Origin: Anaerolineales bacterium
Lineage (GTDB): Bacteria; Chloroflexota; Anaerolineae; Anaerolineales; Villigracilaceae
Assembly: GCA_013140605.1 (NCBI GenBank)
Contig: JABFSL010000110.1
Location: forward strand, 1-36,872
Direction: 5' to 3'
Length of the DNA: 36,872 bases
This document shows, one piece after another, positions 1-14,800 of the stretch. Below the pieces are notes generated by a model. The model had not been told where the DNA came from. It worked only from the letters and a program-made list of their open reading frames with translations, and did no database searches. The position numbers and the translations under genes are program-made. Each line of letters starts with the position of its first letter. Position 1 is the stretch's first letter.

Positions 1-3000
1 TCCCCAACCGTCCGCACAAATTGACTTACCGTCCAGCCATGCGAGAGATCAAAGGAGGATGTCCATTTGCTGACTGGGTCAAAGCTGGTCCCGTTGGAGA
101 GCGCCACATACACCCCATCCAACCCAAATCCGATCAAGTCATCCCGTCCGTCATTGTTGACATCCCCGACTGTCCGTACATACTGACTCACCGTCCAGCC
201 ATGCGAGAGATCAAAGGAGGATGTCCATTTGCTGACCGCACCAAATCCACTCCCAGTCGAGAGCGACACATACACCCCATCCAATCCAAATCCGATCAGA
301 TCATCCCGTCCGTCATTGTTGACATCCCCCACTGTCCGCACAAATTGACTCACCGTCCAGCCATGCGAGAGATCAAAGGACGATGTCCAGCGGCTCGCAG
401 GGGCAAAGGGTTTATTTATCGTATAAATCTCACCACCAGTGAAGTTGCCATCTCCGATAGCCGCCCCGCCCAACGGATTGCTAGCTAGATCAATAATAGA
501 ATTATTATCCACCACATCCAGGCGGACCGTACCGCTCCCGCTGCCTGTGTAGATCGTGACAGTGTAGACACTCCCCGAACCGCTGACCCCGCTCACGGCT
601 GCGCCTGAGACACCGCCGGTTGTCGTCAATGTGAAATCGCTGACATTAACCCCTGTCACGGATTCAGAGAAGGTGACCGTGAAACTTATGCCAGCTGCAG
701 ATGTGGGATTGGCACTGGCACGCAGAATGGATGAAACGGAGGGCGGAATTACCAGATTTCCTACCCCGTCTTGACTCCATAAGCCACCTTCATTGCGCGC
801 ACCAACTATTACATAATAAGGCTGACCATAGGTTAGATTCAATCCCATACGTTTGATTGAAGTTGTTGTACTGGAAACATATGTCCATTCCACCACATCG
901 CGACCGCCTGGTGTAGTGCCAATAGCATAGCGGTACTGGGTGATAAGCGATTGTGGATCACTGCTGCTCCAACTAGCAGAAATGGTTGTTAATCCATCTC
1001 CGCTGGCAGTCACAGTAGGCCGTAAAGGTGGCGTCACATCGCTAATAGAACCAGCATAATCCACGACAAAAGTGGTAGAGGAATTTGGAGCAATACGCAT
1101 TCCATCGGAATCAAATGCGTCACTTACGCTAACGTGATAAGCACCTCTCTGAATCGCAGATGTTATATCTAAGGTTGCTTGGTAAACATTGGAAGACCAT
1201 TGTTGGTTTTCATTTATAAAACAATATGAGTCTCGAAAAACGCCCACCCCGTTGTCTGCGCTAAACCATTTTGCTCCATCATTATCAATTCTGATTGCGT
1301 GAACTTGGCCGCTTGGCAATCGAGTATTTAAAGAAGTGAAAGTTCTCCAAGATGTTCCATCAAAACTGGCAACACCACGATCTGTACCGAACCATTTCGT
1401 ACCATTGCTATCTATAGCAATTGAATAAGCGGTATTATCTGGCAAGCCAGAATTATATGCACCATATACCGTCCAAGATACCCCGTTAAAGTGGGTAACG
1501 CCATCAATTGCGCCAATCCATTTTGTGCCATCACCATCTATAGCTATTGATCTAATCATGTTGCTTGGCAATCCAGAATTGGAGGTGTTGTATGATGTCC
1601 AAGATGCTCCGTCAAAACTGGCAACACCATTATCTGAACCAAACCATTTTGTGCCATTACTTTCTATAGCGACGGAATACACCCAATGGTTGTCCATATA
1701 TATTGTCCAGGATGTCCCATCAAAGCGGGCAACACCGTCATTTGTGCCGAACCATTTCGTGCCATCGCTCTCTATAGCAATCGACCTGATAGTATTATCT
1801 GGTAATCCAGAATTAGATGTGTCATATATTGTCCAGGATGTTCCATCAAAATGAGCAACCCCGCCACCATTTGTACCAAACCATTTCGTGCCATTGCTTT
1901 CTGCTGCAATTGACCATACAGGATAATCACTTAGCGAAAAACCAGAATTATCCTTGTTGTACACCTTCCAAGAGGTTCCATCAAAGCTGGCAACCCCATA
2001 AGCTATTGAGCCAAACCATTTCGTGCCATTACTCTCTGCGGCAATTGCATAGATTTGATTAGTCGGCAATAAAGAATTGGTAGTGTCATATCTAAATATA
2101 TTAGCATCACAAAATCTCACTGATGGAACATAGTTCAAATCCATAGGCTCGCTAAATTGGGCTTGGAAAGTCCCGGTCTGGATGCCCAAAGTAGTGTCTG
2201 GAAGAACATTCACCGAGCGCACATAACCCGGAGCGTTTTGATCAGGCTCGGTCAATACAGGTGCAAAGTTTACGGTTGCTTTCGTGCCGTCATCGTTAGA
2301 ATCGTAAATGCGACCAGCAATAGTTGCGGCATTCGTCGTTCCCCACCAGTTGTTTTGAACAGGAACTGACGTACCATTCGGAATGTTAATATAAAGATCG
2401 TATTTACCAAAGTTTCCATCAATGTTATTATTTGAAATTTCAAGTGGAGTACCGCCTTGTACAACGATTGCAGCATCATAATAATCAGGGGGACCAACGA
2501 GATATCCTAAAGAGCCAGTAAAAGTGTTATAACGCACAGTCGCTGCACCCACTCGCAAACCATAGTAATTATTAGCAATCAAATTATGTTCAATTAAACC
2601 TGTACTAGCGGTCATACCAGTACTAAAACCAATCAAACGGTTATACTGTGCGGTCACATTACTTCCAGCTATCAGGCCGTTACCAGTTCCCGGAGTAATA
2701 TTGTTCTCCACATTATTCCAGGTGACTATGGATGAATTGCCAACCACGATGCCATTTGAAGAAAAAAAAGTATTATGATCTACAATAGTGTTGTTTCCGC
2801 TACGCAAGATACCACGAAAGGTATTATTGACCACACTAAAAGAGTCGCCCAGAGTGGCACCACCAGCAGAATTGTCCTCAAAAATTCCGCCGCTTCCCGT
2901 GAAGGTGCCCATTTCCACTGTACCTCCAATTGTATTTCTCCTAACAATGCCAATACCGCTATCATAAACCGCCAGAGCGAGTCCACCCTCAATAATATTG

Positions 3001-5363
3001 TCTTCAACTATAGAAGCACCATCAATGACCAATCCACCGATTTTATTGCGATACGCTTTGCCAGCTCCCTGTATCCACACTAAGTTAGCAATATCATTAT
3101 CTAATAACCACAGCGGCGTCGCCCCCACAGAACAATTAACCACTGGGTTGCTTTTATTAGTATCTGCAAGGGAAATATGTGAGTGGGAAATGTAAGGCGT
3201 CGCCTGTGTGCAAGCAATTCCTGTCATTCCAGTTCCTTCAATATTTACATACCGCAGGATCGATCCAGAAATATATTGGCCATCTGCATCAGCCTGGGCA
3301 TCTGTGCTTGTGTCATCAAAAAAGATCTTATCCCACTTTTCCGTAGAATTGGATTTGAACAGGATTGGCTGATTAGCTGTACCATCCGCGATCAATGTTC
3401 CACCTACATTTATTGCATAAAAGCCACTAAATAAGACATTCGTCCCAGGTTGAATTGTAAGCGTTATACCGGGCTGAACAGTCACATGGTTGGTAATCAG
3501 ATAAGTCCTGTCATTTGTCCAGGTTTCGTTTACTGTAATTAGTCCAGATTTGCTTACAAATTCCGCCTCAGTCGTGATCGTAAAATCAAAAGAATTTGCA
3601 TATCCCGTAGTGTCGGTGATATTCAACGTAAACGGAATGGAATGGTTATAACCAGCACTGCTGTTCACAGAGAATGAGAAGGCAGCCGCATTTGTCTTTG
3701 TGGTTCCGGCGGCAATATTTCCATAGCTCGCACTTCCATTCACAATCGTAACGTGAGCATCCGTAGTCGAGAGTACGCCTGTTACTCCAAGTGCATCTCC
3801 ATTCCACGAGTCATTGCTTAGGGTTACCGTCAGTTGAGCCGTAGCATTTAATAAAGGCGAGCCATTGGCTTGTCCATTTACGTTATAACCTGTCATGGAA
3901 AGCACAGGGGTTGGCGCCAGCATGGCTGTGCCTGCGTTCAGACGTCCACTGCCCAGCAGTCCTGCATAGCTTGGATTTAATCCATCAATAAGATCGGTGG
4001 TATGGCTGATTTGAGAACGGATCATATCCTGATCCCAATCTGGGTGCAAAGACCGAAGCAATCCTGCTACCCCGGCTGCAAATGGTGCGGCCATTGAAGT
4101 GCCAGAGTTATCCACCCAGCCGCCTCCCAAGGCTGTGGTACGAATGTCAACAGCAGGAGCCGAGACATCCACCCAAGTTCCGTAATTTGAGAAACTAGCT
4201 TTGGCATCGTTGCTCTGCGTACCAGCTATTGCGAGTACATTATCATATGCGGCAGGATAAAACGGTTGATTCAAGTTGTCATTACCCGAACCTGCCACAA
4301 TTACAACACCATAAGTATTGACTGCGGTATCAATAGCGTTTCGCAAGAGAGTAGAGTTGGCATATCCACCCATGGAAAGATTGATAACCTTGGCTCCTTT
4401 TTGCGCCGCATATAAAACACCAGCCGCAATATCTGAGTAATTTGCCGTATCGGAGAGCATTACCTTTACTGGCATTATGCGGCATTGCGGACAAACACCT
4501 GCAATCCCTTGTCCGTTGCCTCCAACAGCCGCTGCTACTCCAGAAACAAGTGTGCCGTGACCTGTTCCATCAGAAATATCATTATTGCCAGCTACGAAGT
4601 TCCAGCCATTCACATCATCAATATATCCATTACTATCATCATCAATTCCATTGCTCGCGATTTCACCAGGGTTTATCCATAAATTCCCAGAAAGGTCTGG
4701 ATGGGTGAGATCGATACCTGAATCAATGATCGCAATTGTGACGGTGGACGAGCCATAAGTATCATCCCATGCGCCTTCGATATTAATTTTTGCTAATCCC
4801 CATTGTTGGTCATATAGCGGATCGTCAATTGTGAGTGAGTTTACAGAGTAGGCAGGAAACGTTTGCGCAGTTGTCGGAATATCAGCCGGGACAGCGATGT
4901 AATCCGGTTCGGCGAATGTCACTTCGGGAAGTGCGGCCAATGTCTCCGCCGCGCCCATAACATCTGTGCCTGATCTCAACTGGACCCGATAGACTCTTTT
5001 TGTTAAATCAGTTCTGTTTACACTCTGACGTTCAGTTGCAACCCGCTTAGAAGGAAAGAGCGGCTCAACCGAGCGCATCCCTAGTGAACTCAGGGCAGCA
5101 CTAAGTGAAGTGGAACCTGCAGTATATGATCTCCCAGTTATCCCTTGTGAATTTGATTCCAAAATAACGCCGCCTTGAACTTCCAAGAGGATCATATCTG
5201 GAACATAAGGATATTGGGCATTTTGAACTTTTGAAGATTCTAATGACATGGAGTTAATAGGCTCATTGGCCTTATTATTCGGTGCAGCGGCAACTTGCCC
5301 GGTGCAAAAAACCAGAAGTAGGATAAGGTTGCTCAAAACTTTGAATATTCGATTGCGAAACAT
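1..5363 (-). CDS. Giant secreted S8 subtilisin-like protease with beta-helix, propeller, FN3, Ig-like and FG-GAP repeats (C-terminus beyond window)
   Basis: The frame is open from ATG at 5363 to the window edge (1787 residues seen), with GGAGG just upstream. Residues 1-27 form a signal peptide. A propeptide-like region (about 45-180) is followed by a subtilase domain with the full triad: Asp214 (DSGID), His269 (GHGT) and Ser423 (GTSMAAP), with Asn361 as the likely oxyanion residue. The rest is modular. About 490-620 is beta-sandwich-like. About 630-990 is an Asn-rich right-handed parallel beta-helix with short N-N-x-I/V rungs. About 1096-1374 holds seven repeats of roughly 42 residues containing SNGTKWFG-type cores, like two-component-regulator propeller repeats. 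Then come an FN3-like domain (about 1440-1530), a bacterial Ig-like/adhesin domain (about 1531-1645) and tandem FG-GAP/VCBS-like repeats with DVNNDGRDDL. Inferred role: extracellular protein degradation or adhesion. The protease call is secure; the substrate is unknown. Confidence 0.93.
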   Translation of the reverse strand, partial: MFRNRIFKVLSNLILLLVFCTGQVAAAPNNKANEPINSMSLESSKVQNAQYPYVPDMILLEVQGGVILESNSQGITGRSYTAGSTSLSAALSSLGMRSVEPLFPSKRVATERQSVNRTDLTKRVYRVQLRSGTDVMGAAETLAALPEVTFAEPDYIAVPADIPTTAQTFPAYSVNSLTIDDPLYDQQWGLAKINIEGAWDDTYGSSTVTIAIIDSGIDLTHPDLSGNLWINPGEIASNGIDDDSNGYIDDVNGWNFVAGNNDISDGTGHGTLVSGVAAAVGGNGQGIAGVCPQCRIMPVKVMLSDTANYSDIAAGVLYAAQKGAKVINLSMGGYANSTLLRNAIDTAVNTYGVVIVAGSGNDNLNQPFYPAAYDNVLAIAGTQSNDAKASFSNYGTWVDVSAPAVDIRTTALGGGWVDNSGTSMAAPFAAGVAGLLRSLHPDWDQDMIRSQISHTTDLIDGLNPSYAGLLGSGRLNAGTAMLAPTPVLSMTGYNVNGQANGSPLLNATAQLTVTLSNDSWNGDALGVTGVLSTTDAHVTIVNGSASYGNIAAGTTKTNAAAFSFSVNSSAGYNHSIPFTLNITDTTGYANSFDFTITTEAEFVSKSGLITVNETWTNDRTYLITNHVTVQPGITLTIQPGTNVLFSGFYAINVGGTLIADGTANQPILFKSNSTEKWDKIFFDDTSTDAQADADGQYISGSILRYVNIEGTGMTGIACTQATPYISHSHISLADTNKSNPVVNCSVGATPLWLLDNDIANLVWIQGAGKAYRNKIGGLVIDGASIVEDNIIEGGLALAVYDSGIGIVRRNTIGGTVEMGTFTGSGGIFEDNSAGGATLGDSFSVVNNTFRGILRSGNNTIVDHNTFFSSNGIVVGNSSIVTWNNVENNITPGTGNGLIAGSNVTAQYNRLIGFSTGMTASTGLIEHNLIANNYYGLRVGAATVRYNTFTGSLGYLVGPPDYYDAAIVVQGGTPLEISNNNIDGNFGKYDLYINIPNGTSVPVQNNWWGTTNAATIAGRIYDSNDDGTKATVNFAPVLTEPDQNAPGYVRSVNVLPDTTLGIQTGTFQAQFSEPMDLNYVPSVRFCDANIFRYDTTNSLLPTNQIYAIAAESNGTKWFGSIAYGVASFDGTSWKVYNKDNSGFSLSDYPVWSIAAESNGTKWFGTNGGGVAHFDGTSWTIYDTSNSGLPDNTIRSIAIESDGTKWFGTNDGVARFDGTSWTIYMDNHWVYSVAIESNGTKWFGSDNGVASFDGASWTSYNTSNSGLPSNMIRSIAIDGDGTKWIGAIDGVTHFNGVSWTVYGAYNSGLPDNTAYSIAIDSNGTKWFGTDRGVASFDGTSWRTFTSLNTRLPSGQVHAIRIDNDGAKWFSADNGVGVFRDSYCFINENQQWSSNVYQATLDITSAIQRGAYHVSVSDAFDSDGMRIAPNSSTTFVVDYAGSISDVTPPLRPTVTASGDGLTTISASWSSSDPQSLITQYRYAIGTTPGGRDVVEWTYVSSTTTSIKRMGLNLTYGQPYYVIVGARNEGGLWSQDGVGNLVIPPSVSSILRASANPTSAAGISFTVTFSESVTGVNVSDFTLTTTGGVSGAAVSGVSGSGSVYTVTIYTGSGSGTVRLDVVDNNSIIDLASNPLGGAAIGDGNFTGGEIYTINKPFAPASRWTSSFDLSHGWTVSQFVRTVGDVNNDGRDDLIGFGLDGVYVSLSTGSGFGAVSKWTSSFDLSHGWTVSQYVRTVGDVNNDGRDDLIGFGLDGVYVALSNGTSFDPVSKWTSSFDLSHGWTVSQFVRTVG
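29..400 (-). repeat. 162-bp in-frame tandem repeats encoding 54-residue FG-GAP-like units
   Basis: The same block recurs with starts at 29, 191 and 353, exactly 162 bp apart. The two complete copies are highly similar by eye, and the third is the diverging first unit. Each unit encodes W-T-S-S-F-D-L-S-H-G-W, then V-R-T-V-G-D-V-N-N-D-G-R-D-D-L, which is typical of integrin-like FG-GAP repeats with an Asp-rich metal loop. The array runs off the window, so its copy number is unknown. Confidence 0.9.
1240..2075 (-). repeat. Seven tandem propeller-blade repeats within the subtilase
   Basis: Seven units of about 126 bp (42 residues) encode variants of S-I-A-I-E-S-N-G-T-K-W-F-G, then G-V-A-S-F-D-G-T-S-W. 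The most degenerate unit (NDGAKWFS) lies near 1270. Seven blades would be enough to close a propeller on their own. The repeat is coding and in frame throughout. Confidence 0.8.
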
Positions 5364-5416
5364 AAGAGTCCTCCAAATGTTCCAAACAGCTTGTAATACC
5401 GTTGTTAATTGATTTC

Positions 5417-5444
5417 AGTATAAATCCAAAGAAGTACAAATCAA
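5417..5444 (-). promoter_or_regulatory. Sigma-70-like promoter for the subtilase gene
   Basis: On the minus strand TTGATT (5439-5444) and TATACT (5417-5422) are separated by 16 bp. They lie about 50 bp upstream of the ATG at 5363, leaving a short leader that ends in a strong GGAGG site. Confidence 0.55.
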
Positions 5445-5463
5445 GTGTCATTTATCCCCGATT

Positions 5464-5515
5464 TGTAAATCAAAAAGAGCCGCAAGATTTCTCTCGTGGC
5501 TCTTTTTGATTTACA
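5464..5515 (-). terminator. Rho-independent terminator after the cbiMQO operon
   Basis: An 18-bp perfect inverted repeat (5464-5481 with 5498-5515) contains AAAAAGAGCC and GGCTCTTTTT around a 16-nt loop, with built-in A and T tracts. It starts 20 bp past the cbiO stop codon. Confidence 0.8.
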
Positions 5516-5535
5516 GCTTATTTCATCCACAAATC

Positions 5536-6291
5536 TCACGGCTTCTCCAACCCATGCGCCGTCAGCAACTCTTCGTTCTCCAGTATTTCCATCGTCAATC
5601 CATCGGCTACAATATTGCCATCATCCATCACGATCGTGCGCGGAAATAATTCCTGCACCAGTCTCATATCATGTGTGGAGACCAGCATCGTGATCGGCAG
5701 TTCGCGCAGTAAATTAATCAATGTCCTGCGTGCGCGCGGATCGAGTCCAGCGGAGGGTTCATCCAACACCAGAATCCTTGGGTTCATGGATAAAACCGTT
5801 GCGATGGCGATGCGTTTTTTCTCGCCGACACTTAAATGATGGGACAGGCGGTCTTTATAGGATGACATGCGCACCGCTTCGAGCGCAGAGTCCACCCGCG
5901 CGCGCACTTCTGATTCAGAGAGTCCCATGTGCAGCGGACCAAATGCCACATCCTCGAATACGGTTGGCGAGAAGAGTTGGTCGTCGGGGTTCTGGAACAC
6001 GAGTCCGACCATTGAACGGATAACAGGCAAATTGTCACGTTTGAGGCGCAGACCGCCCAGATCAATTTCGCCCTGCCCAGCTAGAATCCCATTCAGGTGC
6101 AGCATCAACGTGGATTTGCCCGCGCCGTTCGGCCCGACCAACGCAACCTTATCGCCCGAACATAAGTTGAATGAGATTCCGCGCAGCGCAACGTGCCCAT
6201 CGGGGTAGGAGAAATGCAGGCTGCGTACTTGCAGCACATCGCCTTCGCATTCGGGTAGGTTAAATTTTTCAGCAGCATGTGTAATTGGCAT
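5536..6291 (-). CDS. cbiO: Energy-coupling factor ATPase CbiO (cobalt/nickel transport)
   Basis: This is the cytoplasmic ATPase that powers the CbiMQO-type cobalt/nickel importer. In order it shows Walker A GPNGAGKST, a Q-loop region with VFQNPDDQLFSPTVFEDVAFGP split by the typical NPDDQ signature, the ABC signature LSVGEKKR (the common form is LSGGQ/LSGGEKKR), Walker B ILVLDEPSAGLD and the switch histidine in STHD. The start is placed at the ATG that overlaps the cbiQ stop codon (TAATG). A longer frame back to 6354 would overlap cbiQ by 64 bp and adds residues unlike the family. The length of 251 aa is normal for CbiO/EcfA proteins. Translational coupling to cbiQ is likely. Confidence 0.92.
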   Translation of the reverse strand: MPITHAAEKFNLPECEGDVLQVRSLHFSYPDGHVALRGISFNLCSGDKVALVGPNGAGKSTLMLHLNGILAGQGEIDLGGLRLKRDNLPVIRSMVGLVFQNPDDQLFSPTVFEDVAFGPLHMGLSESEVRARVDSALEAVRMSSYKDRLSHHLSVGEKKRIAIATVLSMNPRILVLDEPSAGLDPRARRTLINLLRELPITMLVSTHDMRLVQELFPRTIVMDDGNIVADGLTMEILENEELLTAHGLEKP

Positions 6292-9546: not shown

Positions 9547-9978
9547 TTATGCGTTCGCTTCTTCAGCTATTTTTTTTGAGATCCGCTTGACAACCTCTGC
9601 CACGCCGCCAATTGGATTCTTCAAAGTTTCAAATGCCACTTCGACGATATCGGGAGCCATGCGTTTGATATTGCGAAAGCGCCGCGTGATGAAGTTCTCG
9701 TCGGGTTTTTGTTCCTCAAGCGCGGTTTGGATTTCCTTGAGTTCTTCCTTTATATCCTGTTTTTTTCCAGATTGGAGTTTTGGGTGCGCGTCAACAAGAT
9801 GGTCCAAGGTTTGAAAAAGCGGCGAGAGATTAACGCTTTGATTGGAAACCGTATTGTTATTTCCAAGAATGATATTGCTTCCCTGCACATTACCGCCGAT
9901 GACGACACTGCCATTGCCAGCGCTCAATCCACTCTTTTTTCCTTCGGCACGCTTAGGTTGACGCTTTTTCTCAGCCAT
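9547..9978 (-). CDS. Small NACHT-linked protein with Gly-rich strand motif and helical C-terminus
   Basis: The 143-aa protein has a Lys/Arg-rich N-terminus (1-16), then a Gly/Asn-rich stretch (21-45: GNGSVVIGGNVQGSNIILGN and onward) with alternating V/I and G/N positions, suggesting short beta-strands or beta-arches. A helical C-terminal half (53-143) contains acidic coiled-coil-like sequence and NIKRMAPDIVEVAFETLKNP. It starts 23 bp after the NACHT-FGE gene stop and ends at a terminator, so the two are one operon. The NACHT protein carries a related stretch (SIAVGGSVTDSAIIHGQTI), which suggests direct interaction or co-assembly. I do not know a characterised function. A regulatory, adaptor or effector role in a conflict system is inference. 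Confidence 0.82.
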   Translation of the reverse strand: MAEKKRQPKRAEGKKSGLSAGNGSVVIGGNVQGSNIILGNNNTVSNQSVNLSPLFQTLDHLVDAHPKLQSGKKQDIKEELKEIQTALEEQKPDENFITRRFRNIKRMAPDIVEVAFETLKNPIGGVAEVVKRISKKIAEEANA

Positions 9979-10001: not shown

Positions 10002-12635
10002 TTACGAATCTTTCGGCGCGATGACCACGCGAAAACCAAGATCATCATTGAACGTCAATGGGATGGACCAGTTGCAAAATGACGAGCGCGCAAACCACTG
10101 ATAGCCGATCCACGAACCGCCGCACACCATACGATATTTCTTTTCCTCATCATACCAGGAACTTGTCCACTCCCAAACATTGCCGCTCATATCCCATGCG
10201 CCTATTGGGCTTACTCCCTTCGGGAAGGTGCAAACCGCAGTCGTACCGCCCAGACCTGTACCGGTCGGATCACTGTCCCATGTGTTCGCGGCGGTTTTAT
10301 CAAACTCATCACCCCAAGGATATTCGCGCCCATCACTGCCGCGTGAAGCGCGCTCCCATTCATCATTATGCGGCAGGCGAATGGCATACCCTTCAGGCAC
10401 AGCCACGATCTTTTTGGAAAGCCAGTTGCAGTACGCTTCAGCTTCAAACCAGCTCACGCCCACGATCGGCACAATCGGATTACTCAACTCGATGTTATGC
10501 CAGTAATAGGGAACATTCCGTTTTGCCAGCGGGCGATGCTCAAGCCAGTCGCGGTTTACATCTTCAAGCGTGCGCTCATCAAACCTGCCTGTGCGCCAGT
10601 CCCAGCCATCGTCACTCCAAAATTCACGGAACTGATACCCGTTCTCTTTTACAAAACGCGCAAACTGGATATTGGTGACGGGATATTTTCCGATCCAATA
10701 CGCGTACGGAATATCCTGCGCTTCCTTCTTAACCCCGGCCTGATACTCGCCAGCAGGCACTTCCACAAACCGATCAATATCCCCGGGCCGCCAGCCAAGC
10801 CTTCCCAATAACAGGCTGGCATGACGTCTCAACTCAGAACGGATCACACCATCCTGCATGGTATCGAGCAGGGCCTGTATGACATGTTCCTTGCTTTGCG
10901 GAGGGACTCCGCCCGGCCATGTATCCAGAACGGCGTCACCGGCCAAGACCACTGCTTCGCCGGGAGGTCCCGGCCGATTATTTACAAGCGCCTCAACCAC
11001 TTCACCGGAAACTTTTGGCAACTGCTGACGAAGCCCAAGATAGCCGATGGTAAGCAAGGTTACTTCACGCCAGGCCTGCTCCCCCACATGCGCAGACAGG
11101 GTTTCGATGATCGGCACAGAATCGCCCTGCCCTTTCAAGGCAAGTGCGACCGCGGCAAGATATTCTTCAAAGGTTAAGTGAATGCATCCATATTCACCGG
11201 GGCCGCGTTCGAGCAGAAGGGCGGCATACTCATGCACATCAGTTAAGAATTGACGCGAGGCTTGCTGCGGTGAAGGATCGCCGCGCTCCAAAAAAAGTTC
11301 TTCAAGTTTGCGGCGTATATCCTCACGTCCCACCAGGCCGATGCCGAGACTGATCTCATGCATCCATAAAGCGAGCGGCGCCAGGATACGTATGGTTTGA
11401 ATTTCATCAATGTCACGGCCGGGAGCGCGGCCGCTGATACTGCGGGCGCGATTCCAGGTGGAGAGCAAAGTATTTACATATTGATCATATAACTGCACAC
11501 GGCGTTCAGGCAGTGAAACGCCCTGTCTCTTCATCAACGCAAGAATGGTGAGAAGCAAAGGCGTGGAAGCCAGCTGCCTTACACCGGGATTCAACTGGAT
11601 CGCATCCAACAGTTCGCGGCGGTCGGTTTCCGCGTCAGCGGCGGCGACAGCCGTATTCCCCTGCGCTTGTTTCTCCAACGCAGATGTCCAATACTTGATG
11701 AATTCTTCGATCTCATCTTCTTCAAAATCAACAATGGTGCATTCCACCAAATCCTCGGCGGAGGGACGCACGGCGCGGTATCCGATCACGCGGCTGGTCA
11801 GTACAAATTTATTTCCCTCGCGGCGATGGAAAGCAAAGAAATCCACCACGCGCTCCACAACCGTATTGCGCATGTTGATGTCACGCACTTCATCGAGGCC
11901 GTCCAATAAGATGAGGGCGCGGCCCGCCTTGAGCGCTTCAGTCAACATGGGGCCAATCGGCAGGTCAGCACCGATGCCGGCAAAATATTCGGCTATGAAA
12001 TCATCGAGGCGGATATCTCTTGTCTGGAGCGCATTGGCAAACGCAGCCAGCGGAAGCAGGATGGGCAGGTAATCCTTCAGCCCGATCTTGGTTCCTTCTC
12101 CGCGCGCAAGTCGCAGGGCAAGATATTTAACAAATGTGGTTTTCCCGGCACCGGGGTCGCCCAGTACGATCACACCGGAATGATTTTGCAAAACCTGTAA
12201 TAATGGAATTGGTTCACCAAAATGCAAAAGGTCCGGTGTTCCATCGCTAACTTCGCGGCCAGCAAGGCTGAGATCGCGTTTCCAGGTTTCGCCTTCGGGC
12301 AACTCCATACGCGCTTTTAGCGGCACGTAAAGCTCAAGCAGTTTTAATTTGAGCGGAACACGGTCTGACACCCCCATGCCTTTTAAGCTAAGGTAATAGT
12401 GGCGGTCTGTCAGGTAGGCGAGATATGCCGCAGTGGCCTCTCGAAGCGTTTCGGCAGGCAGGGCAGGTTTCAGGTCACGCCAGAAGCGGTCTGCAAAGAC
12501 AATCGTCTGCCCATGGATGATGGCGCTATCGGTTACCGAACCGCCAACCGCAATGCTCTGATCGCCCGCGCGGATTTCCTGCTCGGGCTTTATCCGTTTT
12601 ATTGATTTTCTGGGAATTGTTTTCTTTTCGCTCAT
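10002..12635 (-). CDS. NACHT-domain STAND ATPase with C-terminal FGE-sulfatase/C-type-lectin-like domain
   Basis: Numbering is from the ATG at 12635 (877 aa). This start is chosen because an upstream TTG start would precede the likely promoter. Residues 1-25 are basic, and 27-45 hold a Gly-rich strand motif shared with the downstream gene. About 50-135 is a helical region ending LLELYVPLKA, usual before NACHT. The NACHT domain has Walker A GDPGAGKTT (159-167) and Walker B ALILLDGLDEV (240-250). The winged-helix-like arm ends in HLTFEEYLAA (about 486-495), and a helical spacer follows. About 622-877 is an FGE-sulfatase fold (YPVTNIQFARFV, GVSWFEAEAYCNWL, IRLPHNDEWERA, DMSGNVWEW, CGGSW, GFRVV). 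The FGE part probably binds ligands rather than oxidising sulfatase cysteines. NACHT proteins of this type act in bacterial defence or self/non-self signalling. The role here is inferred. Confidence 0.9.
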   Translation of the reverse strand: MSEKKTIPRKSIKRIKPEQEIRAGDQSIAVGGSVTDSAIIHGQTIVFADRFWRDLKPALPAETLREATAAYLAYLTDRHYYLSLKGMGVSDRVPLKLKLLELYVPLKARMELPEGETWKRDLSLAGREVSDGTPDLLHFGEPIPLLQVLQNHSGVIVLGDPGAGKTTFVKYLALRLARGEGTKIGLKDYLPILLPLAAFANALQTRDIRLDDFIAEYFAGIGADLPIGPMLTEALKAGRALILLDGLDEVRDINMRNTVVERVVDFFAFHRREGNKFVLTSRVIGYRAVRPSAEDLVECTIVDFEEDEIEEFIKYWTSALEKQAQGNTAVAAADAETDRRELLDAIQLNPGVRQLASTPLLLTILALMKRQGVSLPERRVQLYDQYVNTLLSTWNRARSISGRAPGRDIDEIQTIRILAPLALWMHEISLGIGLVGREDIRRKLEELFLERGDPSPQQASRQFLTDVHEYAALLLERGPGEYGCIHLTFEEYLAAVALALKGQGDSVPIIETLSAHVGEQAWREVTLLTIGYLGLRQQLPKVSGEVVEALVNNRPGPPGEAVVLAGDAVLDTWPGGVPPQSKEHVIQALLDTMQDGVIRSELRRHASLLLGRLGWRPGDIDRFVEVPAGEYQAGVKKEAQDIPYAYWIGKYPVTNIQFARFVKENGYQFREFWSDDGWDWRTGRFDERTLEDVNRDWLEHRPLAKRNVPYYWHNIELSNPIVPIVGVSWFEAEAYCNWLSKKIVAVPEGYAIRLPHNDEWERASRGSDGREYPWGDEFDKTAANTWDSDPTGTGLGGTTAVCTFPKGVSPIGAWDMSGNVWEWTSSWYDEEKKYRMVCGGSWIGYQWFARSSFCNWSIPLTFNDDLGFRVVIAPKDS

Positions 12636-12662
12636 GCCCTGCCTCATGGATAAACTAGTTTG

Positions 12663-12690
12663 AGTATACAATAATTCAAAGGGAGTTAAC
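12663..12690 (-). promoter_or_regulatory. Weak candidate promoter for the NACHT-FGE operon
   Basis: TATACT on the minus strand (12663-12668) lies about 28 bp upstream of the chosen ATG. No good -35 element is at the right distance (GTTAAC at 12685-12690 is the nearest). It runs back to back with the T-box promoter. Confidence 0.4.
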
Positions 12691-12719
12691 TTAACCAAAT
12701 TGCAAGGTACACTTTTTCA

Positions 12720-12754: not shown

Positions 12755-13118
12755 AATAACAAGGCTGTGACGAGGAAAAGTACGCTTGTACGACGGTTCA
12801 GAGAGCAGGTAGAACGGTGAGAGACCTGCCCGAAACGACAAAGCCGAATGGCCCTCCGAGCTGCAAGGGCAAAATCCAGTCTGGTAGTCGTTGGTCAGAT
12901 TGTCGAGTAGTCCGAGACGGGAACTGCACCCGTTATCCCGCAGAGTTACTTGGAAGGAAATAAATCATCCGACCAGCTAACTACAAAGTGAGGCTGGCTT
13001 CCCGTTGCATCATAACGGGATTTTTTCTTAATAGCCATTTGTCAGCCTAAGTTGGGTGGCACCACGGATGCGAATCAATCAGCGTTCGTCCCATTTGGGA
13101 TGAACGCTGTATTTTTTT
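12755..13118 (+). promoter_or_regulatory. T-box riboswitch, tryptophan-specific
   Basis: Stem I shows the GA-rich opening GACGAGGAAAAGTA, with AGTA at 12779-12782. An apical stem pairs GCAGGT (12805) with ACCTGC (12824). A specifier loop reads CGAA-TGG-CC with the Trp codon at 12849-12851; flanking pairs GCTT/AAGC and GAGG/CCTC close the loop. The conserved T-box element TGGGTGGCACCACGG is at 13053-13067. Its UGGC (13057-13060) would pair with the GCCA end of a tRNA with discriminator G, which bacterial tRNA-Trp has. A terminator follows. The downstream gene is TrpB-like, which agrees. Uncharged tRNA-Trp should stabilise the antiterminator and switch the gene on. A stable internal hairpin with a U-run at 13002-13027 is unusual. 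Confidence 0.93.
13080..13118 (+). terminator. T-box-controlled intrinsic terminator
   Basis: CAGCGTTCGTCCC (13080-13092) pairs with GGGATGAACGCTG (13097-13109) around a 4-nt loop, followed by a run of seven T (13112-13118). It lies directly after the T-box element, whose 3' flank would have to be released to form the antiterminator. Confidence 0.9.
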
Positions 13119-13396: not shown

Positions 13397-13426
13397 AAAC
13401 TACGAAATTATTTTTTGGAGGAACCC

Positions 13427-14800
13427 ATGACTGACCAAACCCGCTTTCAATTGAACGAATCTGACCTGCCGAAATTCTGGTACAACATTTATGCAGATAG
13501 CCCGGTCCCGCCGACCCCGGTCCTGCATCCCGGCACGATGGAGCCGGTCACCCCTGACTTTTTGTCCGTTCTCTTTCCGATGGACTTGATCTTGCAGGAG
13601 ATCAGCACGGAAAAATATATCGAGATCCCCGAAGAAGTGCGCGAGATATATAAACTTTACCGCCCCACTCCGCTCCTGCGCGCCCGCAGATTGGAGAAGG
13701 CGCTCGGCACAACAGCGCACATCTACTATAAATATGAAGGCGTCTCCCCTTCTGGAAGTCACAAGCCGAACACCGCCATTCCGCAAGCTTATTACAACAA
13801 GATCGCCGGCACAAAGGCCATGACCACCGAAACCGGCGCGGGGCAATGGGGATCCTCGCTCGCGTTTGCCTGCAATGTTTTCGATATTGATCTTGAAGTG
13901 TACATGGTGAAGATTTCATATCAGCAAAAACCGTATCGCCGCAATTTGATGGAAACATACGGCGCACGCGTTTATGCGAGTCCCACAAACTTGACGAATT
14001 ATGGCCGCTCCGTGTTGGCTGAAAATCCGAATAATCTTGGCTCGCTTGGTATTGCCATTTCAGAAGCAGTGGAAGCCGCGGCTACATCCAATGGCACAAA
14101 GAAATATGGATTAGGCTCGGTGTTAAATCATGTGCTCTTACATCAGACCGTAATCGGTGAAGAAGCCTTGAAGCAAATGGACATGGCGGATGAATATCCC
14201 GATGTGGTCATCGGCTGCGTGGGCGGCGGATCGAACTTCGCGGGGATTGCCTACCCGTTCCTGAGAGAGAATCTCAAGAATGGCAAACGCACCCGTCTCG
14301 TTGGCGTGGAACCAACCGCAACACCCACACTGACCAAAGGCGTGTACACCTTTGATTATGGTGATACCGCGAAGATGGCTCCGATTGTCAAGATGCATAC
14401 TCTCGGTCACGACTTCATGCCGCCCGGCATCCACGCGGGTGGATTGCGCTATCACGGCATGGCCCCCAGCATCAGCGGATTAGTGGATGCCGGTCTCATT
14501 GATGCAGTGGCTGTCAAACAAAAAGAGACTTTCGAAGCCGCGATCCAATTTGCAAAAGCGGAAGGGATCGTGCCCGCCCCCGAGTCCGCACATGCCATAC
14601 GTGTGGCGATTGACGAAGCCTTGGATGCAAAAGCCAAAGGCGAGAAGCGCGTGATCCTGTTCAACCTTTCAGGTCACGGCAACTTTGACATGGCGGCGTA
14701 CGAATCCTATCTCAGCGGGAAACTGGAAGATTACGAGTACCCTGCCGAGGCGGTGAAAGAATCGATGAGCAAACTTCCGCAGGTGAATCTCGCAGCTTGA
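13427..14800 (+). CDS. TrpB-like (TrpB2-type) tryptophan synthase beta chain
   Basis: This 457-aa PLP enzyme is expected to make tryptophan from indole and serine. The PLP-binding lysine is Lys113 in [22 protein letters not shown] is the conserved loop after it, and [15 protein letters not shown] binds the cofactor phosphate. Length and the N-terminal extension ([17 protein letters not shown]) match the longer TrpB2 branch rather than the trpA-partnered TrpB. The ATG at 13427 is chosen for its GGAGG; an earlier TTG at 13415 lies within that site. No trpA is nearby, so the enzyme may work alone, for example in indole salvage. The tryptophan T-box upstream supports a tryptophan role strongly. 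Confidence 0.93.

What the first reader, a model, noticed from the sequence alone, without database searches (positions are those of the whole stretch)
10002..10120. FGE C-terminus looks like a diversity-generating-retroelement variable region
The last part of the NACHT-FGE protein (GGSW-IGYQWF-ARSSFCNWSI to DDLGFRVV) has aromatic and hydrophobic residues at just the sites where relatives usually carry Asn, Arg or Asp. FGE/C-type-lectin C-termini are the known targets of retroelement-driven A-to-N diversification, and STAND-FGE proteins have been reported as such targets. Several codons (ATC, GGC, TAT, TTT, TGC) are possible A-derived variants of AAC or AAT, but a few (TGG) do not fit. No reverse transcriptase or template repeat is in the window.
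Basis: partly seen in the sequence, partly recalled or inferred. Interest (0 to 1): 0.62.

Follow-up and report, generated by a model that had tools for sequence, protein, structure and literature searches.

The report
Fixed sister of hypermutated sensors
This gene looks like a bacterial immune-type sensor whose tip is rewritten by a mutation-making element in its nearest relatives outside this group of species, but here the tip is one fixed, strongly preserved sequence.

Summary
The sequence is as described, but it is not an active DGR variable region. The C-terminus (window 10023-10121, minus strand, end of an 898-aa NACHT-FGE protein) is nearly invariant in 45 examined species-level genomes (own included) of six genera, down to 67% overall identity. 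Over 40 of these, the VR-homologous codons have pN/pS 0.05-0.08 against 0.21 elsewhere, with near-saturated synonymous change. No DGR reverse transcriptase or template repeat was found in the genome.

The nearest full-length relatives outside this clade (57-59% identity) are real DGR targets, with adenine-specific template mismatches in exactly this segment, which aligns without gaps. In three trees the fixed clade is one group nested among such targets. Best reading: a DGR-diversified sensor lost diversification once and has been kept as a fixed sensor with a TCAD2-like partner gene (44 of 45 loci). The loss is inferred from the trees; an adenine-bias 'fossil' test was not diagnostic, and several intermediate relatives have unproven DGR status. 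Ligand and output are unknown. The general idea of freezing a good variant is in print (PMC7517822).

The parts
10002..12698 (-). NACHT-FGE (STAND-type) protein, 898 aa from the TTG at 12698; most orthologs begin to align at residue 16-20, so the start may be the ATG at 12635 (residue 22)
12504..12581 (-). N-terminal Gly-rich segment (..RAGDQSIAVGGSVTDSAIIHG..) that resembles the N-terminus of the neighbouring TCAD2-like protein
   Evidence: BLASTP of the two window proteins 28.5 bits, E 1e-4; the sister DGR locus L099 shows the same sharing at 64.7 bits, E 8e-17
11682..12173 (-). NACHT NTPase domain
   Evidence: PF05729, 46 bits, residues 176-339
10023..10772 (-). C-terminal FGE-sulfatase (C-type-lectin-fold) domain
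   Evidence: PF03781, 163.4 bits, residues 643-892; AlphaFold2 pLDDT 83.8, pTM 0.87; matches EgtB, FGE and a Treponema DGR variable protein (2y3c, Z 21.4)
10023..10121 (-). segment homologous to the DGR variable region of sister proteins; fixed here
10038..10109 (-). the 24 residues IGYQWF..DDL that correspond one to one to the 24 template-encoded residues between GGSW and GFR in sister DGRs
9547..9978 (-). 143-aa TCAD2-like partner gene, 23 bp downstream, same strand
   Evidence: PF19971 22.9 bits (below the 27-bit cut-off) in the window, 20.3 in one genus member, 58.1 and 50.5 in two other-genus orthologs, 50 in the sister DGR locus; present at 44 of 45 fixed-clade loci

Best explanation
The gene is a STAND-type sensor: an N-terminal Gly-rich interaction segment, a NACHT switch, and a C-terminal C-type-lectin-fold FGE domain that binds a ligand. 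Its ancestor was a target of a diversity-generating retroelement, which kept rewriting the binding face. In the common ancestor of this clade (six genera of one family) the gene was cut off from the retroelement, and one binding face was fixed and then held by purifying selection. It now most likely works as an invariant sensor of a conserved ligand: binding would switch the NACHT domain to an oligomer, and the Gly-rich segment would recruit the co-encoded TCAD2-like partner through the matching segment. SHOWN: the conservation, the selection, no DGR found in this draft genome, DGR targeting of the nearest relatives, the nesting in the trees, the partner gene. INFERRED: that the ancestor was diversified, that the face binds a ligand, the identity of any ligand, and everything about signalling and outcome.
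For: Orthologs at 77-87% identity in the genus and 68-84% in five other genera keep the C-terminal motif nearly unchanged. Of 24 residues, 17-24 (median 22) are identical over all 780 pairs of 40 proteins; the window gene and its 67%-identical ortholog share 23 of 24. Nine compared pairs of non-fixed relatives, 47-80% identical outside, share 5-11 of 24; in five of these pairs both members have a template shown. pN/pS: 0.211 N-terminus+NACHT, 0.215 FGE before the segment, 0.080 segment, 0.053 for 17 positions chosen against the sister template; pS 0.69-0.89 (40 of 45 loci). Nearest relatives are DGR targets: G070 57% (22 A / 2 other mismatches; RT, TR and two targets in the locus), G002 57% (14 A / 2 other; no RT in the locus), G036 41% (18 / 0; RT in the locus); G341 57% (21 / 2) and G271 42% (18 / 1), both with RT in the locus; a second G070 copy matches the G070 template (16 / 1). 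Trees built without the segment: fixed clade one group (SH-aLRT 93; 100/99), sister to the G070+G002 targets (99/97), next branch G341 with a Krumholzibacteriota protein (96/93). In 9 genomes compared, of 19 that hold the fixed gene and an RT hit, the DGR template does not match the fixed gene's end. The other 26 of the 45 fixed-gene genomes gave no hit with the BPP-1 RT.
Against: The adenine-bias test does not separate the fixed gene clearly from controls: against the G070 template it has 18 of 28 A sites and 5 of 34 other sites changed (codon positions 1-2, GGSW to GFR; other clade members 17-18 and 5-8), while five ordinary FGE ends of the same genome have 16-19 of 28 and 7-11 of 34 (similar over a longer stretch). 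Several intermediate relatives have no proven DGR: no RT was found in the held genomes of L143, L144 and L145, and L146's gave only a weak RT match of unknown type; no template was found either, but L143 was searched with its own segment and L144 and L146 only with that of L145. Of 14 fetched stretches around relatives in the class, an RT was seen in 3 and a template in 5. If the rest are truly non-DGR, a re-gain of targeting in the sisters is possible. Deeper outgroups were partly fetched because an RT lies nearby. No population reads were available. No function was tested.
Confidence: 0.72

Rival explanations
1. The segment is a live DGR variable region whose RT and template lie in an unassembled part of the genome.
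For: The genome is a draft, 96.2% complete in 132 contigs; related genera have DGRs that target NACHT-FGE genes; one template can serve a target on another contig in this family.
Against: The segment is nearly identical in 45 genomes, pN/pS 0.053-0.080; three pairs of non-fixed relatives that are 76-80% identical outside share only 8-11 of 24 residues; templates of co-resident DGRs do not match it in 9 genomes compared.
Confidence: 0.02
2. The clade never was a DGR target: the FGE sensor is an ordinary fixed domain, and its sisters were recruited by DGRs later.
For: The adenine-bias test is not diagnostic; DGR status of L143-L146 unknown; no RT in 11 and no template in 9 of 14 class stretches; a partly conserved C-terminus also occurs in a Chloroflexales group.
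Against: Proven DGR targets lie on several outer branches (G070, G002, G341, G036, G271), so this needs several independent recruitments to the same segment in the same gapless register, against one loss.
Confidence: 0.22
3. The FGE domain is a working formylglycine-generating or sulfoxide-synthase-like enzyme and the conserved residues are catalytic.
For: Sequence and fold hits to EgtB, OvsA and FGE.
Against: Scores are far below the NCBIfam enzyme cut-offs (EgtB 73.7 against 360; SenA 70.8 against 420). FGE needs two C-terminal cysteines (recalled); this end has two, of which the one before GGSW is Arg in 38 of 40 orthologs and the other is Cys in 34 of 40. The fusion to NACHT fits a sensor.
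Confidence: 0.04

Closest known systems
NACHT/STAND-CLec DGR targets of multicellular bacteria (Dore et al. 2024, PMC10907252; abstract, section 11 part 1 of 2, and passages seen)
   Same: NACHT plus C-terminal C-type-lectin/FGE domain, often two targets per locus; filamentous Chloroflexi are named among the hosts
   Different: Here the variable segment is fixed and conserved, with no DGR RT or template found in the genome
Remote or orphan DGR variable-protein paralogs in cyanobacteria (PMC7517822; passages seen)
   Same: Target-type protein without an RT nearby; [quoted passage not shown]
   Different: There a single paralog with remnant template homology; here a 45-genome clade with measured purifying selection and a nested tree position, but no template remnant
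Treponema denticola DGR variable protein 1 (PDB 2y3c; the name TvpA is from recall and PMC7159879 passages)
   Same: FGE-type C-type-lectin fold, Z 21.4, 205 residues aligned
   Different: A DGR variable protein; here the matching segment does not vary, and the domain is fused to NACHT
EgtB / OvsA / FGE enzymes
   Same: Same fold (EgtB 4x8b Z 26.0, OvsA 25.5, human FGE 21.5-21.8)
   Different: Far below the enzyme family cut-offs

Membership tests
Active diversity-generating retroelement target (VR) | DGR-type reverse transcriptase in the genome | tested here: not met
   0 candidates with BPP-1 Brt in G000; the one RVT_1 match is RT_UG14, E 1.2e-198. Draft genome, 96.2% complete.
Active diversity-generating retroelement target (VR) | Template repeat, mismatches only at template adenines | tested here: not met
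   No near-copy in the genome: best other match 76% over 55 bp, inside another FGE gene; sister template finds only 73% over 59 bp, inside an FGE gene on C110
Active diversity-generating retroelement target (VR) | Sequence varies between relatives at template-adenine codons | tested here: not met
   Nearly invariant in the clade; pN/pS 0.053
Active diversity-generating retroelement target (VR) | Clustered variation within a population | not testable with these tools
   No reads or conspecific strains were available to me
NACHT-CLec sensor family (same protein family as DGR targets) | NACHT domain plus C-terminal FGE/CLec domain, homologous over the whole length to proven DGR targets | tested here: met
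   57-59% identity to targets in G070, G002 and G341; Pfam
NACHT-CLec sensor family (same protein family as DGR targets) | Anti-phage or cell-death function | not tested
TCAD2 family (partner gene) | PF19971 above gathering score (27 bits) | tested here: inconclusive
   Window 22.9 and one genus member 20.3; two other-genus orthologs 58.1 and 50.5, sister DGR locus 50
FGE / EgtB enzymes | Family-level score above NCBIfam cut-offs | tested here: not met

The most novel reading that the evidence does not exclude
A retroelement-diversified receptor was promoted to a fixed innate-type sensor: hypermutation found a binding face for a conserved target, the face was cut off from the retroelement once, and selection has preserved it through six genera while sister lineages still scramble the same face. 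If true, retroelements act as a discovery engine for hard-wired immune receptors, and this gene's ligand should be a conserved molecule met by the whole clade.
Probability: 0.45. Interest if true: 0.72.

Novelty: new variant of a known kind. Interest (0 to 1): 0.52.

Why it matters
DGR targets of the NACHT-lectin kind are proposed antigen sensors, but their ligands are unknown and their binding faces differ from copy to copy. A fixed sister clade offers one receptor with one long-held binding face, whose ligand should be stable and therefore findable. It also gives a test case for whether hypermutation feeds hard-wired immunity.

Tried and rejected
Template search with the window segment and with the sister template in the own genome: only short partial matches, the best ones inside other FGE genes. 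Adenine-bias fossil test, two versions, with up to five templates: with the G341 template the window gene has 12 of 14 changes reachable by adenine change alone (seven other clade members 9-12 of 13-15) against 7-10 of 14-15 in five controls, but the ranges overlap, with other templates more so; not used as proof. The five controls are the distinct ends with the 24-residue spacing, found among the 11 other FGE matches of the genome. Viral contigs: no relative found. DGR proof for the intermediate relatives L143-L146: none found. Fold prediction covers only the FGE domain, and confidence in part of the fixed segment is middling (10-residue blocks of 71 and 58, then 87 and 94), so no surface mapping was attempted. 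Literature searches: the closest statement found is in PMC7517822 (passages); PMC8144416 and PMC10053308 were seen only as passages, PMC8195603 and PMC8867640 only as listings. A printed clade-wide case outside this open-access library cannot be excluded.

Rows dropped: the first tree, pN/pS and pair counts used 40 of 45 fixed-clade loci; L027, L034 and L035 were left out because my ORF extension met a stop in front of the gene, L083 and L092 because the contig ends inside the gene. What is seen of their segments is conserved too. Fragments of orthologs in further genomes (such as G049, G102, G115, G120, G122, G141) were not examined. The '17 template positions' hold 16 adenine-bearing codons of the G070 template plus one that is not (CGT), and omit one that is (GAC); the omitted one is invariant. 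In the pair comparison segments were compared without gaps; in L104/L108 and L106/L114 the segment lengths differ, so those two counts may be too low. G214 (L256) is set apart from the list of proven near relatives: the 59% match covers residues 61-526 in one open frame, while the segment with the template match (21 A, 1 other) lies in the next open frame, 33% identical; they may be one disrupted gene. It was used in the tree under the DGR label.

Full report
What is there. The stretch is the end of an 898-aa ORF on the minus strand (12698..10002) with NACHT and FGE-sulfatase domains. A 143-aa gene follows 23 bp downstream on the same strand. The window is contig C85 of a 3.93 Mb, 132-contig, 96.2% complete draft genome. 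The closest named orthologs are Chloroflexota MAGs, mostly titled Anaerolineales or Chloroflexi.

Is it a live variable region? No. The genome's only RVT_1 match is a UG14-type defence reverse transcriptase (PADLOC E 1.2e-198). The BPP-1 DGR reverse transcriptase finds 0 candidates in this genome, although 55 of 152 genomes of the family have a match at E 1e-10 or better, the weakest of which may be other RT types. No near-copy of the segment exists in the genome: the best other match is 76% over 55 bases, inside another FGE gene. The sister template finds only a 73% match over 59 bases, also inside an FGE gene.

Conservation. (109 of 152 genomes with a match at E 1e-20, paralogs included) lists long orthologs at 77-87% identity in the genus and 68-84% in five further genera. 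The motif GGSWIGYQWFAR.SFCNWSIPL.FNDDLGFR is almost unchanged in the 30 loci (the window's own among them) and in the 15 further loci, where L083 ends inside it at the contig edge. Over 40 of these 45 loci, pN/pS is 0.211 (N-terminus and NACHT), 0.215 (FGE before the segment), 0.080 (segment) and 0.053 (17 template-like positions), with pS 0.69-0.89; 9.7% of all 24-residue windows of the protein are as conserved as this one or more. So the sites that a DGR would scramble are among the better kept in the protein, although silent sites are nearly saturated, which speaks against recent transfer.

The relatives. The nearest full-length proteins outside this clade are DGR targets. In G070 a DGR RT and template sit between two NACHT-FGE genes, one of them 57% identical to the window protein; its segment differs from the template at 22 adenines and 2 other bases. 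G002 has the same two targets and a template (14 A, 2 other) but no RT in the stretch; RTs lie on other contigs of that genome. G036 (41%): 18 A, 0 other, RT present. A second G070 copy on another contig matches the G070 template at all but 16 adenines and 1 other base. A search of 396 genomes of the class (23 with a match at E 1e-100) led to 14 further stretches: an RT was seen in 3 and a template in 5. Among these are G341 (57%: 21 A, 2 other, RT present) and G271 (42%: 18 A, 1 other, RT present). G214 has RT and template (21 A, 1 other), but its 59% match and its segment lie in two different open frames. G377 (50%) is weaker (18 A, 7 other over 96 columns, no RT in the stretch). In the other nine stretches no template was seen. 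The G070, G002, G341, G214 and G271 templates align without gaps to the window segment: 24 residues between GGS[WF] and GFR in each. Both TGG codons of the window stand where the templates of G070, G002 and G341 have AGG.

Contrast in divergence. Nine compared pairs of non-fixed relatives, 47-80% identical outside the segment, share 5-11 of 24 residues; in five of the nine both members have a template shown, and two of the counts may be low because the segments differ in length. All 780 pairs of fixed-clade proteins share 17-24, median 22; the window gene and its 67%-identical ortholog share 23.

Trees, built without the segment; 71 rows, fixed clade of 40 in one group (SH-aLRT 93), sister to G070+G002 (100); 37 rows, fixed clade 100/99, sister pair 94/83, then L143 (100/97); 33 rows, fixed clade 100/99; sister G070+G002 targets 99/97; then G341 target with a Krumholzibacteriota protein 96/93; other proven targets outside. 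The simplest reading is one loss of diversification. The weak points are the intermediate lineages whose DGR status is unknown, the fact that part of the deep outgroup was fetched because an RT was nearby, and long branches noted by the tree program.

No trans targeting. Of 45 genomes with the fixed gene, 19 have an RT hit. In 9 of these I compared a template: each matches its own variable region with almost only adenine mismatches (7-22 A, 0-2 other); against the fixed gene's end seven give only short alignments (13-29 columns) and two give long ones with 16-18 A and 19 other mismatches.

The fossil test. I asked whether the fixed segment itself still shows adenine-only change from a template. 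It does not separate clearly from controls: 18 of 28 adenine sites and 5 of 34 others changed (5-8 in other clade members), against 16-19 and 7-11 in five ordinary FGE ends of the same genome. The ancestry claim therefore rests on the trees.

Partner and mechanism. The downstream gene is TCAD2-like: below the Pfam cut-off in the window (22.9 of 27 bits) and in one genus member (20.3), above it in two other-genus orthologs (58.1, 50.5) and in the DGR locus of G002 (50). It lies beside the fixed gene at 44 of 45 loci; the one miss is cut off by a contig end. The N-terminal Gly-rich segments of the two proteins resemble each other (E 1e-4 here; E 8e-17 in G002), which suggests that they meet through that segment. 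The FGE domain model (32-row alignment, pLDDT 83.8, pTM 0.87) matches EgtB (Z 26.0), human FGE (21.5-21.8) and a Treponema DGR variable protein (Z 21.4). I infer a sensor in which the fixed face binds a conserved ligand and the NACHT domain passes the signal to the partner; none of this has been tested.

Literature. PMC10907252 (abstract, section 11 part 1, passages) describes NACHT-CLec DGR targets as putative antigen sensors and says CLec-STAND proteins are not characterised. PMC7517822 (passages) already proposes that favourably diversified genes may become conserved after DGR removal, and cites one cyanobacterial paralog with remnant template homology. PMC7159879 was seen as passages. In the searches made I found no clade-wide, tree-supported case with measured selection, which is what this one adds.

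Noticed in passing
G000:C95:17174-17662 (L001:880-2400, minus): The genome's only RVT_1 match is a UG14-type defence RT (PADLOC RT_UG14, E 1.2e-198), a group whose action is unknown to me.
   Followed up: partly
L099 (G002:C112) 2736-5761: DGR target pair with a template but no RT in the stretch; the variable region of the 57% copy carries a stop codon right after GFR, so the locus may be decaying or served by RTs elsewhere in the genome.
   Followed up: partly
L156, L157, L158 (Chloroflexales / Chloroflexi / Chloroflexaceae titles), C-termini: A NACHT-FGE group with a partly conserved segment (16, 16 and 23 of 24 identical at 79, 83 and 93% identity outside) and no template in the fetched stretches; possibly another non-diversified lineage.
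   Followed up: partly
G000:C110:944-4572: Three FGE-domain matches in a row in the window's genome, with different segments between GGSW and GFR.
   Followed up: no
window 12758-13096 (+): T-box leader (Rfam RF00230, 97.5 bits) upstream of a 461-aa ORF at 13415-14800 that looks like a tryptophan-synthase-beta-type protein (label from recall).
   Followed up: no
L100 (G070:C118) end of gene: A further target copy on another contig matches the G070:C431 template (16 A, 1 other mismatch), so one template appears to serve targets in trans.
   Followed up: yes
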